From Haloglycomyces albus DSM 45210 (GTDB taxonomy: Bacteria; Actinomycetota; Actinomycetes; Mycobacteriales; Micromonosporaceae), in contig NZ_AZUQ01000001.1 of the NCBI RefSeq assembly GCF_000527155.1, forward strand, positions 1,857,615 to 1,921,614: 64,000 nucleotides of DNA. The letters run 5' to 3'. The translations under genes and the position numbers were made by a program. Under the pieces are notes generated by a model that was not told the DNA's origin, ran no database searches, and saw only the letters and a program-made list of their open reading frames with translations. Shown piece after piece: positions 9,325 to 44,442 of this stretch (positions are counted from its first letter, which is position 1; every line of letters begins with the position of its first letter).

Positions 9325-10696
9325 TTAGTACTCTAGCCGTAGTTTGTGTTTTAGCGGTGGGAGGTGGTCGTCTCGTCGCTTGTAGTGGCATTCTTTTGCT
9401 GTTCGTGCGTGTCTTCGTTTTCTGTCTGACCAGGCTATAACCTGTTGTACGGTGGCGCGCATGGATAGGCAGAACACGGCAATCAAGTGAGCGGTGTGGG
9501 GCAGGCTGATCGGGTCGACGTCTTGTGACTGGTTGGTGGTTCTGAACTGGAGCGTGGCGATCAGATGGATGAGAAACGCCGTGATGACGAATGTCAGGTG
9601 TCGGTAGGTGGACGTCCAGGTCCGTACCTGATGGTGGTCGAGTCCGTGGCAGCTTTTGGCGTGTTGGAAGGCCTCTTCGATCGACCAGCGTGATCCGGCA
9701 ACGTGGATCAGTTGGGCCAGTCCGGCCGGTGTGGGCCACCAGGCGTGGTAGAACGCTCGTTCACCGGTGGAGCGGTTTTCGCGAACCAGCAGGTAACGGT
9801 ATCCGTCCGCGTGGTCGGGGTCGTCGAAGGTGACCATCGCCCACCGGTAGGTGCGCCTTCCTTTGGCGCCCTGTCCGATCGCTCGGGTCTGCCAGGAGTC
9901 GTCCGGGAGCCAATCGGTGACCCGTCCGGCTGGTTCGGCTCGCCGTCGGGGGGCGGGTGCGGATCCGGGTGGTGGCCTTGACGGCGAGAACGAACGGGAT
10001 CTGTTGCTTCCAGAGTTCGTCCTTGAGGTCAGGGGATTGCCCGTAGACGGCGTTACCGGTGGCCGCACTGATCGCTTCTGACCCGATCCGGTCGGCCCAC
10101 GTAGCGGTCATGGCCGCCGCCATCTGACCCTTGGTAGCGAATTCGACGTCCTCGTCGATGCCTGCTGCCGCGCGGCGGCCGGAATCGGCGCACCAGGATT
10201 GGGGAAGATAGACGGCCACATCTAGTGGAGCGAAACCCCGATCGGTCTTCCAGGCGGCCCAGACGTGGACTTGTGCGTTTTCGGTCCGACCGGCCGTCCC
10301 GGTATATTGGCGCTGAACCCCCAGCGTGTGGGTGCCTTTCTTGACGTGTCCGGTCTCGTCAAACACCAGAATGCCACCGGTCCCGAGAACGTCTGTGGTG
10401 ATCTCGCCGAGCGTGGAACGGACGGCCGCCTCGTCCCAGCATGCGCGTTCCAACAAGTATTGCAGCCGGTCGGGAGTCGCGTGCCCGGCCCATTCGCTGA
10501 TCGTCCAGGCGTTTTTCGACGCCAGCTCGCTCATCAGTCCCTGCGTATAGGTCTGGGCATTCCAGAACGTCTCCGGTCGTTTGAATTGTGATGAGAGGGC
10601 GGAGAACACCCGGTCGGAAGCGTCCTCGTGAACGTCGGTGATTATGCTGGCTTGAGCGGCCGCTGCTTTATTTTCTTCTGTCACAAGAGAAAACAC
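9325..10696 (-). pseudogene. IS701-family transposase, split by a frameshift
   Basis: The N-terminal part (from 10696) has the IS701 features RPETFWNAQTYTQGLMSE, the first catalytic Asp in GILVFDETGHVKKG, and VYGQSPDLKDELWKQQIPFV. The C-terminal part is in another frame and carries WRxxRN-type and SRWSIEEAFQHAKSCHGLDHH sequence with the catalytic Glu. Coding passes from one frame to the other at a run of six C on the minus strand (plus 9948-9953), a shift equal to +1. This is most simply a one-base expansion of the run. The stop codon TAA (9325-9327) lies in the target duplication, not in the element. Confidence 0.88.
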
Positions 10697-10793
10697 AGGC
10701 AGCGGCCGTCTCTGGTTTCACCAACTTGTCCAGCGCCACACCAACCTAAGGGCTCAAAACTCCCTAAAACACAAACTACGGCTGGAGTATTAG
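9325..10793 (-). mobile_element. IS701-family insertion sequence with TTAG target duplication
   Basis: The element proper is 9329-10789 (1461 bp). Its 26-bp terminal inverted repeats differ at one position; the shared outer part reads TACTC then (T/C)AGCCGTAGTTTG. Both ends are flanked by TTAG (9325-9328 and 10790-10793), a 4-bp target duplication of the YTAR type expected for IS701 elements. A second, truncated copy of a related element lies at 12640-13098. The intact ends imply a recent insertion, although the transposase is frameshifted. Confidence 0.92.
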
Positions 10794-11340: not shown

Positions 11341-12111
11341 ATGCATACGAAGATCCGTAGATCCAAGATCTCCGGAAAAATCCGTGCAGCAGTGGTTGTG
11401 TCTGCTGGACTTACAGCAGCCATCGCATGTCAACAATCCGTCTCAGCGTCTCCGGCTCACAGTGAGAACGCCCCCTCACCGGCCGAATCCTCCGAACAGG
11501 CATACACGACTGACGCTGAATGCACCACCGACTCAACCACGTACGAGCCGGTAGAGCTAATGGAGGACCCGAGCGAATGGGCGGACCTCACCCGCGAGGG
11601 AGTCAACAACGGGAGCATCCCTCTTGTGAATATCGGCGAAACAGACCTCCAATGGGACGGCGTTAAAGCCATCCCAAACCCGGACGACGGAAGAACCGCT
11701 GTCGTTGTCCCCGCCCACAAGTACGCCACTGACTCGTCAGGGCTGATTCTTGAATACTCCGCGTCGCAGGAACTCCTCCAGACTCGGGAGAACCACTTCG
11801 AGCGGATCGGCAGCCACGAGATCGAGTTCACCAACTCGGTAGACGGTGCCACCGTGACCACCGAAAAAATCCAGGAACCTGAGGTCTCCATCCAGGGGTT
11901 CAGCTGGAGCACGTTCAAGAAGTGCGCAAGCAGTCTGGGTGTTCCGAACTGGGCGGTCGGGATCGTCGTCGCGGCCTGCTTCGCTGGACCCGCAATCGCC
12001 GCCTGTATCGCCGGATCGGCCGTTTTCGGCGCCAGCAGGCTTGCACAGTGCGCTGATAGGGCGCAAGGACTCCCTATGGCCCTGAGCAACGAGAGCAACA
12101 TGGTTGCGTAA
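11341..12111 (+). CDS. Secreted precursor with halocin-C8-like Cys-containing C-terminus
   Basis: 256 residues. Residues 1-37 are a signal peptide (basic start, AAVVVSAGLTAAIA core, cleavage probably in SVSA-SPA). Residues ~38-185 are a soluble acidic domain that I do not recognise. From about 187 the chain changes: FSWSTFKKCASSLGVPNWAV, GIVVAACFAGPAIAACIAG, then SRLAQCADRA, with four Cys (195, 213, 222, 237) spaced in a hydrophobic Gly/Ala-rich tail. This resembles the C-terminal peptide of halocin C8-type bacteriocin precursors, in which a large N-terminal part acts as immunity protein. The likeness is by eye only. A small membrane protein follows after a hairpin. Confidence 0.6.
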   Translation: MHTKIRRSKISGKIRAAVVVSAGLTAAIACQQSVSASPAHSENAPSPAESSEQAYTTDAECTTDSTTYEPVELMEDPSEWADLTREGVNNGSIPLVNIGETDLQWDGVKAIPNPDDGRTAVVVPAHKYATDSSGLILEYSASQELLQTRENHFERIGSHEIEFTNSVDGATVTTEKIQEPEVSIQGFSWSTFKKCASSLGVPNWAVGIVVAACFAGPAIAACIAGSAVFGASRLAQCADRAQGLPMALSNESNMVA

Positions 12112-12153
12112 CATTGATGAAGGTTTCGCGGTACTGAAACTACCGGAATCATA

Positions 12154-12199
12154 GACGGTGGTTGCTGAAGCCCAATTTCCGGCCTCAGCAACCACCGTC
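12154..12199 (+). terminator. Hairpin between precursor gene and small membrane protein gene
   Basis: A perfect 15-bp stem (GACGGTGGTTGCTGA and complement) with a 16-base loop, 43 bp after the stop of the 11341 gene and 27 bp before the start of the next. With no U-run it may only partly stop transcription, giving more precursor than downstream message. Confidence 0.65.
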
Positions 12200-12225
12200 G
12201 TCTAGAAGAGAATCTATGAGGCAAC

Positions 12226-12426
12226 ATGAGTAAAGAAAGAATCTGGGGCCTAGGGTACATCGTCTTTATTGCTGTCTGGGCGTACACGCTCGGGCAAAGT
12301 TGGTTCGACGGATGGTGGCCTGTTATTTCTTGGGGCATCTTTTTCGTCGTGAGCATAACCTTTTTCATTTTTATTCCCTCAGGATCCACAGAAGACACGG
12401 ACGGTTCCACTACGGATCAGTCATAA
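12226..12426 (+). CDS. Small two-helix membrane protein (possible immunity partner)
   Basis: 66 residues with two hydrophobic helices (GLGYIVFIAVWAYTLGQSW, then VISWGIFFVVSITFFIFI) and an acidic, Thr/Ser-rich tail (EDTDGSTTDQ). Trp and Phe are abundant. No family is recognised. The location directly after the halocin-like precursor gene, on the same strand, is the reason to think of an immunity or export-helper role. GAGG lies just before the ATG. Confidence 0.6.
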   Translation: MSKERIWGLGYIVFIAVWAYTLGQSWFDGWWPVISWGIFFVVSITFFIFIPSGSTEDTDGSTTDQS

Positions 12427-12640
12427 CCACTCTGGCAGCCCTGGCTTGCCGAGAGAACTCCACGGCATAAACACGAGTTCGCGTCATGGGCGCACCAAAC
12501 CCGCCAGGTCTTGAACGCTGCCACGAAAGAAGCCCGGGCAGGGCGGCCTTCACACGCTAGATCACTTGACGGCGTGCGCAGGTAGTCGTCCCGGTAGTAT
12601 CTCGCCAGAATCCAACAGTTTGACGTAAGCGATCGTCGAT
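12427..12640. other. Unidentified junction DNA next to the truncated IS
   Basis: About 210 bp between the small membrane protein gene and the IS701 break point. It holds an open minus-strand frame fused to the transposase fragment, but the translated sequence (YYRDDYLRTPSSDLACEG and onwards) is not recognised. Probably leftovers of another element. Confidence 0.35.
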
Positions 12641-13098
12641 TCTTGACATGTCCGGTCTCATCGAATGCCAGAATACCGGCGGTGCCAAGAGCCTCGACGG
12701 CCATGGGGCCAAGGGTCGTGCGAACGGCCGACTCGTCCCACCGGGCACGTTCCAACAAATATTGCAGCCGGTCAGGACTAGAGTGTCCAGCCCACTCGCT
12801 GATCGTCCAGGCGTTCTTCGATTCCAGATGGGACATCAAGCCCTGAGTGTAGGTCTGGGCGTTCCAGAACGTCTCCGGTCGTTTGAAGTGTGACGAGAGG
12901 GCGGAGAACACCCGGTCGGAAGCTTCCTCATGAGCGTTGGTCATTACACTGGCCTGAGCGGTCGCTGTTTGATTTTCTTGTGTCACAACTAGAAACACAA
13001 CCAGCGTCCGTCTCTGGTTTCATCAACTTGTCCAACATCACAAGTCCCCTGCCACCTCCCGAAACTCCCTAAAACACAAACTACGGCTGTAGTATTAG
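12640..13098 (-). mobile_element. Truncated second IS701-family copy
   Basis: The inverted repeat end at 13069-13094 closely matches that of the first copy and is again followed by TTAG (13095-13098). The transposase N-terminus is read from 12998 (RPETFWNAQTYTQGLMSH, NAWTISEWAGHSSPDRL) down to FDETGHVK near 12641, where the similarity stops abruptly. The other two thirds and the left end are missing. It lies in the same orientation as the intact copy, so the two flank the halocin-like genes as direct repeats. Confidence 0.85.
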
Positions 13099-13115: not shown

Positions 13116-13682
13116 ATGGGTATGGGCAGATACACGAAATTTATGCTGGCGGAGCCCGGTCGCGAAAGCTCGAAACTAGCTCCAACGCTGCTCGGCCTCC
13201 GGGTTTTTCTTAGTATTTATATGGTTTTGGCAGCATTGTTTTTCGCGCCGATATTGTTTGCTGTTATTGGAATCAGCGTGATGGTCACCGAAGATGAGGC
13301 AAAAATACTGGGCTATGCCATGGGGGTCGTCGTCCTAATTGTTCCCGCCCTGTGCCTCTCAGCTATCACTCTAGGACTGCTGTGGAAGTACCCACCTGCC
13401 GCCCGAGGGTGGCTGGGACTAGCAGCGATATTTGTCATGATGCAAGGTGCGTTCGTGGGGATAGTCGCGTTCGAGGTTCCTCTGTTCCTGGTTGTGTCAC
13501 TGCCTTGTCTAGGCGGACCGATTTGGTTCTTGATCGTGGCTTCGCGGGACAGTATCTGGGATCGAGAGAATTACGGTAAACACCCTGGTGTCTGGGTCCT
13601 GGTGCTTGCAGCGGTTATTCCGCTGGGGATTTCTTTTGCCATCGTCGGCACCGCACTATATGTGGGTTGGCATGGTCTTTGA
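13116..13682 (+). CDS. Integral membrane protein, paralogue of the next gene
   Basis: 188 residues with five likely transmembrane segments. The section CLSAITLGLLWKYPPAARGWLG matches VLSAVSVGLLWAYPPSGRGW in the following gene, and the overall layout is the same, so the two are paralogues. I do not recognise the family. GGAGG at 13101-13105 supports the ATG at 13116. The truncated IS701 end stops only about 20 bp upstream, so the original promoter may have been replaced by one in the IS end. Confidence 0.65.
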   Translation: MGMGRYTKFMLAEPGRESSKLAPTLLGLRVFLSIYMVLAALFFAPILFAVIGISVMVTEDEAKILGYAMGVVVLIVPALCLSAITLGLLWKYPPAARGWLGLAAIFVMMQGAFVGIVAFEVPLFLVVSLPCLGGPIWFLIVASRDSIWDRENYGKHPGVWVLVLAAVIPLGISFAIVGTALYVGWHGL

Positions 13683-13795
13683 CCTGGAGTGAAAGTGATT
13701 GCACTGGTGCGCTCGGTGTTGGATGAGAGATAACCCGTTTTCGGGGTAATTACGTGCTGAAACGATGCGTGGACGATATTCCATATTATGGATTT

Positions 13796-14368
13796 ATGAG
13801 TGAAACTACTGATTCGGAATCGACTGCCCTTGAACGCCCTAAGTTTCGATCATCACCAATTTTTATTGGAGCGCAGTCTGTTGTGTCGGGTTATATCCTA
13901 ATAATGGGCTTCCTTTCTGTATTTTCCCTGGTTTTCGCCAATGCCTTGACAGCGATGACGTCGGACGAAGATAAAACCGCTTCTCAGCTGATGCTCGGGG
14001 TAGTCATGTATTTTGTGCCGCCCCTGGTGCTTAGCGCTGTTTCAGTTGGTCTATTGTGGGCGTATCCTCCCTCAGGAAGAGGCTGGTTGTTTGCATTGGC
14101 TATGTACGTATTCCTTCAGGGGCTCGTGCTTATTGTCCTAGGCTCGAAACTTCCACCTCTCCGAGAGATGTCAGTAACCCCAATTGTGACGTTGTGGAGT
14201 GTGGCGACCTACCTATTCGTCATCGTTGGGCGAGGTCGTAATTGGGCGCGTGCGGAATTTGGGCCTACTCCAGATAGCGGTCGACTAGTTGTTGCCGCAG
14301 TTGTTCCCACCGTTGTGGTGTTGGCACTGGTTGCCGGCGGCGTAATGGCAATCCAGTTTGCTCTTTAA
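13796..14368 (+). CDS. Integral membrane protein, paralogue of the preceding gene
   Basis: 190 residues: a short polar N-terminus (SETTDSESTALERPKF) and about five transmembrane segments, with the shared core VGLLWAYPPSGRGW. The function is unknown. The start at 13796 is favoured over an extension to 13754 because TATTAT (13784-13789) is followed by six bases and ATG with no ribosome site, the leaderless layout seen elsewhere here. Codon use is less GC-biased than in the housekeeping part of the window. Confidence 0.65.
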   Translation: MSETTDSESTALERPKFRSSPIFIGAQSVVSGYILIMGFLSVFSLVFANALTAMTSDEDKTASQLMLGVVMYFVPPLVLSAVSVGLLWAYPPSGRGWLFALAMYVFLQGLVLIVLGSKLPPLREMSVTPIVTLWSVATYLFVIVGRGRNWARAEFGPTPDSGRLVVAAVVPTVVVLALVAGGVMAIQFAL

Positions 14369-44038: not shown

Positions 44039-44406
44039 GGGGCTGATCGGTTTCGACTCTGTATGTTGAGGTGAGGGAAGCGGGCCGAGGAAGCCAACGC
44101 TGTCTCGTTAACCAACGTTGGAAACCAATAAGTGCCAACGCAAAACGCACTGACTTCGCCCTCGCTGCTTAAGCGATAGCGAAGTTGTCGCACCGGATAA
44201 GCATCCGTTCCGGATTCGCGGCATCATTAAGGATGCTAGGTTGACATCTTCGTCGCTGGGGTGTTGACGACACAAACGGCGACTAGAGCCCGTCACACCG
44301 ACTTGTCCGCGTGATCAGTGGGGCTCAATAAAAGACACAGCGGACTGCGCCCGGAGAAGTCTCACTGAGGCAACGGAGGACCTGGGTTCAATTCCCAGCA
44401 GCTCCA
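44039..44406 (+). ncRNA. ssrA: Transfer-messenger RNA
   Basis: 368 nt. The 5' end GGGGCTGATCGGTTTCGACT and the 3' end with T-arm GGTTCAATTCC and CAGCTCC form the tRNA-Ala-like part with the G3:U70 pair. The tag frame at 44134-44172 encodes ANAKRTDFALAA before TAA, a typical actinobacterial degradation tag. CCA is not encoded. It rescues stalled ribosomes with SmpB. Confidence 0.97.
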
Positions 44407-44442
44407 CGAAAACCTGGTTTACCAGGTAAAATGCCGAGCATA

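What the first reader, a model, noticed from the sequence alone, without database searches (positions are those of the whole stretch)
11341..12426. Candidate secreted bacteriocin of halocin-C8 type with a small membrane partner
The protein at 11341-12111 has a signal peptide, a large acidic domain, and a distinct hydrophobic tail with four Cys from about residue 187. The same plan is known for halocin C8 precursors, where the long N-terminal part is the immunity protein and the tail the antimicrobial peptide. A 66-residue two-helix membrane protein follows on the same strand after a partial terminator hairpin. The pair lies between two IS701 copies, as expected for a mobile competition module. 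Similarity is by eye, not by search.
Basis: partly seen in the sequence, partly recalled or inferred. Interest (0 to 1): 0.66.

Follow-up and report, generated by a model that had tools for sequence, protein, structure and literature searches.

The report
Bacteriocin-like precursor with tiny membrane partner
An actinobacterium carries a divergent gene for a secreted, cysteine-tailed protein that looks like a bacteriocin precursor, next to a tiny two-helix membrane protein; a similar tiny neighbour sits beside most of its relatives in Bacillus phages, plasmids and even haloarchaea, which suggests that it is the protein that protects the producer.

Summary
Window 11341-12111 encodes a 256-aa protein with a signal peptide, an acidic domain and a 4-Cys hydrophobic tail; a 66-aa two-helix membrane protein follows. 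The protein is not a halocin C8 by any curated profile. Its tail does belong to a Gram-positive group with the same plan, found here on a Streptomyces plasmid, Bacillus and Terribacillus plasmids and SPbeta-like phages (phrog_33667; weakly NCBIfam TIGR04450, 'putative immunity/bacteriocin fusion'). All intact tails have an even number of Cys (4, 6, 8 or 10); the window copy lacks one Cys pair together with a six-residue deletion. The main result is the partner. A 45-95 aa protein with two predicted membrane helices lies within 150 bp of 7 of 9 representative precursors, in differing orientations, against 4 of 141 background genes. In one B. velezensis plasmid the precursor has decayed while the partner is intact and under purifying selection, as expected of a retained immunity gene. 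Best explanation: a secreted, proteolytically released, disulfide-bonded membrane-active bacteriocin plus a dedicated two-helix immunity protein. The IS701-like copies are damaged and about 81% alike, so they are not evidence of a live mobile module. No activity could be tested.

The parts
11341..12111 (+). secreted bacteriocin-like precursor, 256 aa (P0001)
   Evidence: homology of tail region
11341..11448 (+). predicted signal peptide, residues 1-36 (VSA|SP); C30 leaves a weak lipobox possible
   Evidence: sequence inspection; not run through a signal predictor
11449..11886 (+). acidic domain, residues 37-182; one helix then about five strands in a low-confidence model
   Evidence: composition; AlphaFold2 mean pLDDT 39; not independently alignable
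11887..12108 (+). hydrophobic C-terminal tail, residues 183-256, Cys 195, 213, 222, 237; putative active peptide
   Evidence: hhalign tail score 51.3 against shuffles max 20.9; alignments
12154..12199 (+). strong hairpin without T-run between the two genes; possible U-less terminator or attenuator
   Evidence: (z = -5.5)
12226..12426 (+). 66-aa two-helix membrane protein, putative immunity protein
   Evidence: linkage in relatives
9326..10792 (-). IS701-like element, transposase frameshifted, 29-bp inverted ends
12640..13098 (-). IS701-like remnant, about 81% identical to the first, left half missing

Best explanation
The locus is a two-gene bacteriocin module. The 256-aa precursor is exported, and a protease (own or environmental) releases the C-terminal 60-75 residues. 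That tail folds into several short helices tied by disulfides and acts on the membrane of competing Gram-positive cells; the acidic N-domain keeps it soluble or inactive until cleavage. The 66-aa two-helix membrane protein sits in the producer's membrane and blocks the peptide there (immunity). Shown by computation: tail homology to the Gram-positive halocin-C8-like group, even Cys counts in intact tails, and linkage to tiny two-helix proteins across distant relatives. Inferred: export, cleavage, killing and immunity. The window copy is divergent (4 tail Cys instead of 6-8) and might have a changed target or be losing function.
For: Tail search against plasmids gave the Streptomyces sp. BHT-5-2 protein with the same plan and length, 248 aa (BLASTP pair E = 3e-10 for a single comparison). 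Its relatives lie on Terribacillus and Bacillus plasmids and in SPbeta-like phages. phrog_33667 matches the Streptomyces and B. pumilus members (E 2e-12 and 1e-5). hhalign of that group against P0001: probability 95.4%, residues 78-240; score 60.4 against block-shuffle max 26.7, tail alone 51.3 against max 20.9. Tail Cys counts are even in all intact members: 4 here, 6 (Streptomyces, B. pumilus), 8 (SPbeta, Terribacillus, G011, G251), 10 (Halobacterium). Tiny two-helix neighbour in 7 of 9 representatives against 4 of 141 background genes, Fisher p = 4e-8. In 21 SPbeta-type viral loci it overlaps the precursor by 4 bases, with pN/pS 0.12 (tail) and 0.27 (partner). Orphan case: precursor decayed, partner intact with ratio about 0.2. 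SPbeta already arms lysogens with sublancin plus the immunity protein SunI (PMC8270828), so a second weapon on such phages fits.
Against: No member of this Gram-positive group has been tested, as far as I could find. P0001 matches no curated family. If the Streptomyces relative is left out, the profile match is weak (full score 34.6; tail 26.0 against shuffle max 24.4). The N-domain is not alignable alone (score 14.0 against shuffle max 19.7). The window and SPbeta partners share no sequence similarity, and the window partner has an acidic end where several others are basic. Two of nine loci lack a typical partner (G251: a 36-aa single-helix ORF; Haloferax lucentense: a 230-aa protein). AlphaFold models are poor (pLDDT 39 and 48) and fold searches gave nothing.
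Confidence: 0.66

Rival explanations
1. The N-terminal domain is the immunity part, as reported for HalI in halocin C8, and the small membrane protein helps export or processing instead.
For: In halocin C8 one gene gives both HalI and the peptide (PMC11509114; Sun et al. 2005 as cited in PMC12893001). NCBIfam names the Gram-positive group an immunity/bacteriocin fusion.
Against: The N-domain is the least conserved part. In the decayed B. velezensis locus the membrane gene survives without an intact precursor, which suits immunity better than export. A cis-fused immunity part would not explain the partner's repeated presence.
Confidence: 0.2
2. The tail is a plain membrane anchor of a surface protein and the neighbour is an unrelated small gene.
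For: Residues 205-232 are hydrophobic enough for a membrane helix. C30 could be a lipid attachment site.
Against: The tail keeps W and Cys positions and an even number of Cys across phyla; both models give four short helices instead of one long one, at low confidence. Neighbour linkage is 7 of 9 against 4 of 141.
Confidence: 0.1
3. The window locus is a decaying remnant: a former bacteriocin pair caught between IS elements and no longer active. This could hold together with the best explanation for the group.
For: One Cys pair lost with a six-residue deletion; about 19 residues after the last Cys, longer than in relatives; both IS copies broken; no close relative in the genomes searched with the protein or its tail.
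Against: Both frames are intact with ribosome sites. GC3 of the precursor is normal. The Cys loss is a pair, leaving an even number, unlike the decayed copy in L069.
Confidence: 0.2

Closest known systems
Gram-positive halocin-C8-like proteins (NCBIfam TIGR04450 'putative immunity/bacteriocin fusion bifunctional protein'; phrog_33667 members of SPbeta-like phages)
   Same: Signal peptide, about 250 aa, middle domain, C-terminal hydrophobic Cys tail with shared W and Cys positions; adjacent two-helix small protein
   Different: P0001 itself does not reach either profile; 4 tail Cys instead of 6-8, six-residue deletion, longer end after the last Cys; the partner is 114 bp downstream behind a hairpin, not overlapping
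Halocin C8 (NCBIfam TIGR04449, NF040679; Pfam PF22862 Hac8_like_N)
   Same: Overall plan: exported precursor with long N-part and Cys-rich hydrophobic tail. Halobacterium and Haloferax larsenii loci also have tiny two-helix neighbours
   Different: No profile match; tail pattern differs (10 Cys in Halobacterium, 4 here); no Hac8_like_N domain
SdpC/YitM toxins with SdpI/YitQ immunity (Bacillus subtilis)
   Same: Exported precursor whose hydrophobic C-terminal region gives the toxin, with a separate immunity gene (PMC6818787)
   Different: No SdpA/SdpB-like genes seen beside the pair; no family match
Sublancin 168 with SunI (SPbeta)
   Same: Prophage-borne bacteriocin with a separate small immunity protein (PMC8270828)
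   Different: Sublancin is a glycopeptide with its own transporter and glycosyltransferase; not homologous

Membership tests
Halocin C8 (TIGR04449 / NF040679) | Match to the curated C-terminal domain profile | tested here: not met
   No hit at E up to 1 or for the tail alone at E up to 10; no TIGR04449 hit in the own genome
Halocin C8 (TIGR04449 / NF040679) | Hac8_like_N domain in the N-part | tested here: not met
   No Pfam hit; the profile is in the library, as the Halobacterium protein matches it
Halocin C8 (TIGR04449 / NF040679) | Tail with 8-10 Cys | tested here: not met
   4 Cys
Gpos_C8_like (TIGR04450) / phrog_33667 group | Match to the curated profile | tested here: not met
   No hit for P0001; its Streptomyces relative is weak for TIGR04450 (E 0.05) and strong for phrog_33667
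Gpos_C8_like (TIGR04450) / phrog_33667 group | Homology of the tail by profile comparison with members | tested here: met
   hhalign probability 95.4%, tail score 51.3 against shuffle max 20.9; weaker without the Streptomyces relative
Gpos_C8_like (TIGR04450) / phrog_33667 group | Signal peptide, middle domain and C-terminal Cys tail in about 250 aa | tested here: met
   (signal peptides by eye)
Gpos_C8_like (TIGR04450) / phrog_33667 group | Homology of the middle domain | tested here: inconclusive
   Collinear in the full alignment, but score 14.0 alone against shuffles mean 11.7, max 19.7
Bacteriocin with dedicated immunity gene | Killing by the peptide and protection by the partner | not testable with these tools
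   needs bench work
Composite transposon with IS701 ends | Two intact, near-identical IS copies around the cargo | tested here: not met
   about 81% identical, one frameshifted, one truncated

The most novel reading that the evidence does not exclude
Halocin-C8-like and Gram-positive C8-like bacteriocins are generally two-gene systems. Besides the precursor, each locus recruits its own tiny two-helix membrane immunity protein. The partners are mostly unrelated in sequence and placed upstream, downstream or divergently. The accepted picture of one gene giving both peptide and immunity would then be incomplete, from haloarchaea to actinobacteria and SPbeta-like phages.
Probability: 0.5. Interest if true: 0.7.

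Novelty: new variant of a known kind. Interest (0 to 1): 0.55.

Why it matters
If right, a large, almost untested group of secreted antimicrobial proteins gains a specific, simple handle: a tiny adjacent membrane protein that should confer resistance. It predicts a new accessory weapon of SPbeta-like phages in easily handled Bacillus subtilis lysogens. It offers a rule (Cys tail plus two-helix neighbour) for finding divergent members that profiles miss, such as this one. It also makes the single-gene immunity model of halocin C8 directly testable.

Tried and rejected
Single-sequence searches of 61, 399 and 296 genomes with P0001 and 201 with its tail gave only chance hits, checked by reading the aligned frames. 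Genome-contig scans with both proteins gave nothing. TIGR04450 rang in none of 296 genomes of the phylum, and in no control either, so that result is uninformative. The Streptomyces relative found no match in 131 genomes of a genus I took to be Streptomyces. The profile A3 found only the own copy plus one chance hit in 208 genomes. Fold searches with low-confidence models gave nothing. Viral scans with the B. pumilus, Streptomyces, Terribacillus and halocin-C8-like queries were empty. Rejected: composite transposon, because of the IS divergence.

Full report
WHAT IS THERE. ORF 11341-12111 encodes 256 aa with a signal-like start, an acidic stretch (29 D+E, 7 K+R in residues 41-182) and a hydrophobic tail with Cys 195, 213, 222 and 237. 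A 66-aa ORF follows 114 bp downstream; it has a good ribosome site and two hydrophobic segments. Between them lies a hairpin far stronger than shuffles (z = -5.5) and without a T-run. The window lies in a 3.5-Mb complete genome.

NOT A CURATED FAMILY. P0001 matches nothing in Pfam, NCBIfam, PHROGs or PDB sequences, and neither do the tail alone or the 66-aa protein above cut-off. Searches of several hundred genomes gave chance hits only.

THE LINK. A tail-only translated search of plasmids returned one weak hit (E 0.8) on Streptomyces sp. BHT-5-2 plasmid p1. Read in frame, it is the C-terminus of a 248-aa protein with signal peptide, middle domain and a tail that aligns over about 70 residues: PEVSIQGFSWSTFKKCASSLGVPNWAV... 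against PQISTFGFSWGKLNDCLSGAGISSWAL.... Its own relatives are clear: Terribacillus and B. velezensis plasmids, B. pumilus pBP6000, three SPbeta-like phages and 21 further viral contigs. PHROG 33667 (unknown function) covers SPbeta, Streptomyces and B. pumilus members, and TIGR04450 touches the Streptomyces one. A profile of this group finds P0001 over residues 78-240 with probability 95.4%. Score 60.4 compares with block-shuffle max 26.7, and for the tail alone 51.3 with max 20.9. Without the Streptomyces protein the match falls to 34.6 (full) and 26.0 (tail; shuffle max 24.4), so the link leans on that one relative. The middle domain is not significant alone. Features not used to find the relatives agree with homology: length, C-terminal position of the tail, signal peptide and the neighbour.

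CYSTEINES. Intact tails have 4 (window), 6 (Streptomyces, B. pumilus), 8 (SPbeta, Terribacillus, and the actinobacterial halocin-C8-like L032 and L033) or 10 (Halobacterium) Cys; always even. In P0001 the two middle Cys of the six-Cys pattern are gone together with six residues. That suggests they paired with each other; this is inference.

THE PARTNER. I asked whether a tiny two-helix protein is always adjacent. SPbeta phages and B. velezensis: 54 aa, overlapping by 4 bases. Terribacillus: 55 aa, 10 bp downstream. B. pumilus: 59 aa, divergent, 92 bp upstream. Streptomyces: 86 aa, or 54 from an inner ATG, 60 bp upstream on the same strand. G011, an actinobacterium of the same family with a true halocin-C8-type domain: 86 or about 51 aa, directly downstream. 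Halobacterium and Haloferax larsenii halocin-C8-like loci: 68 aa downstream and another 75 aa divergent upstream. G251 has only a 36-aa single-helix ORF and Haloferax lucentense a 230-aa protein. With one rule (45-95 aa, exactly two segments, within 150 bp) the score is 7 of 9 precursors against 4 of 141 other genes from the window, an SPbeta phage, a Terribacillus plasmid and a Halobacterium plasmid; Fisher p = 4e-8. An earlier count with slightly different rules gave 3 of 351 background genes. No partner reaches the cut-off of any Pfam or NCBIfam family, and window and SPbeta partners share no detectable similarity.

SELECTION AND AN ORPHAN. Among SPbeta-type alleles pN/pS is 0.12 for the tail and 0.27 for the partner. 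On B. velezensis pDMB05-1 the precursor is reduced to a damaged 58-codon tail, while the 54-aa partner is intact with a ratio of about 0.2 to intact-system copies. Keeping the small gene after losing the big one is what an immunity gene would do. It is a single case.

MECHANISM. Most likely: export, protease release of the tail, disulfide-bonded short-helix peptide acting on membranes, immunity by the two-helix protein. Export and the membrane location of the partner are predicted from sequence; cleavage, killing and immunity are inferred by analogy to halocin C8 (PMC11509114), to SdpC/YitM (PMC6818787) and to a protease-activated haloarchaeal precursor (PMC12893001). AlphaFold models of P0001 and an SPbeta relative are poor (pLDDT 39 and 48), but both show helix, strands, then four short tail helices in the same order. 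Their confidence is too low to prove a fold.

MOBILITY. Both flanking transposases are DDE_5 (IS701-like by my knowledge). They are 80-81% identical, one frameshifted, one truncated. That shows past IS activity, not a working composite transposon. The better sign of mobility is that the relatives sit on plasmids and temperate phages.

NOVELTY. The precursor is a divergent member of a known but almost untested kind. The recurrent two-helix partner did not turn up in the papers I could search; subscription papers on HalI were not held, so it may be known there for haloarchaea.

Noticed in passing
L069:2498-2835 (B. velezensis pDMB05-1): Decayed bacteriocin-like precursor (58-codon tail remnant) with an intact, conserved 54-aa two-helix gene: an orphan-immunity pattern.
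   Followed up: partly
L070:2884-3803 and L071-L091: SPbeta-like phages carry a hypothetical, bacteriocin-like precursor overlapping a 54-aa two-helix gene near yorP/yorR; a possible second phage-borne weapon besides sublancin. Whether these phages also keep sublancin was not checked.
   Followed up: partly
L103:1389-2150 (Halobacterium NRC-1 pNRC200): The halocin-C8-like gene is cut short beside an IS4 element, and the downstream small gene is missing while the divergent upstream two-helix ORF remains.
   Followed up: no
L101:1033-1260 and 2304-2510; L102:1026-1253 and 2299-2505: Haloarchaeal halocin-C8-like genes are flanked by two different small two-helix proteins, which does not sit easily with single-gene immunity.
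   Followed up: partly
window 13116-13682 and 13754-14368: Two tandem membrane proteins of 188 and 204 aa, paralogous (26% identity, E 3e-18 for the pair), no Pfam family.
   Followed up: partly
window 12154-12199: Very strong hairpin without a T-run between two same-strand genes; possible U-less terminator separating precursor and partner transcripts.
   Followed up: partly
window 44039-44407: tmRNA gene with tag ANAKRTDFALAA.
   Followed up: no
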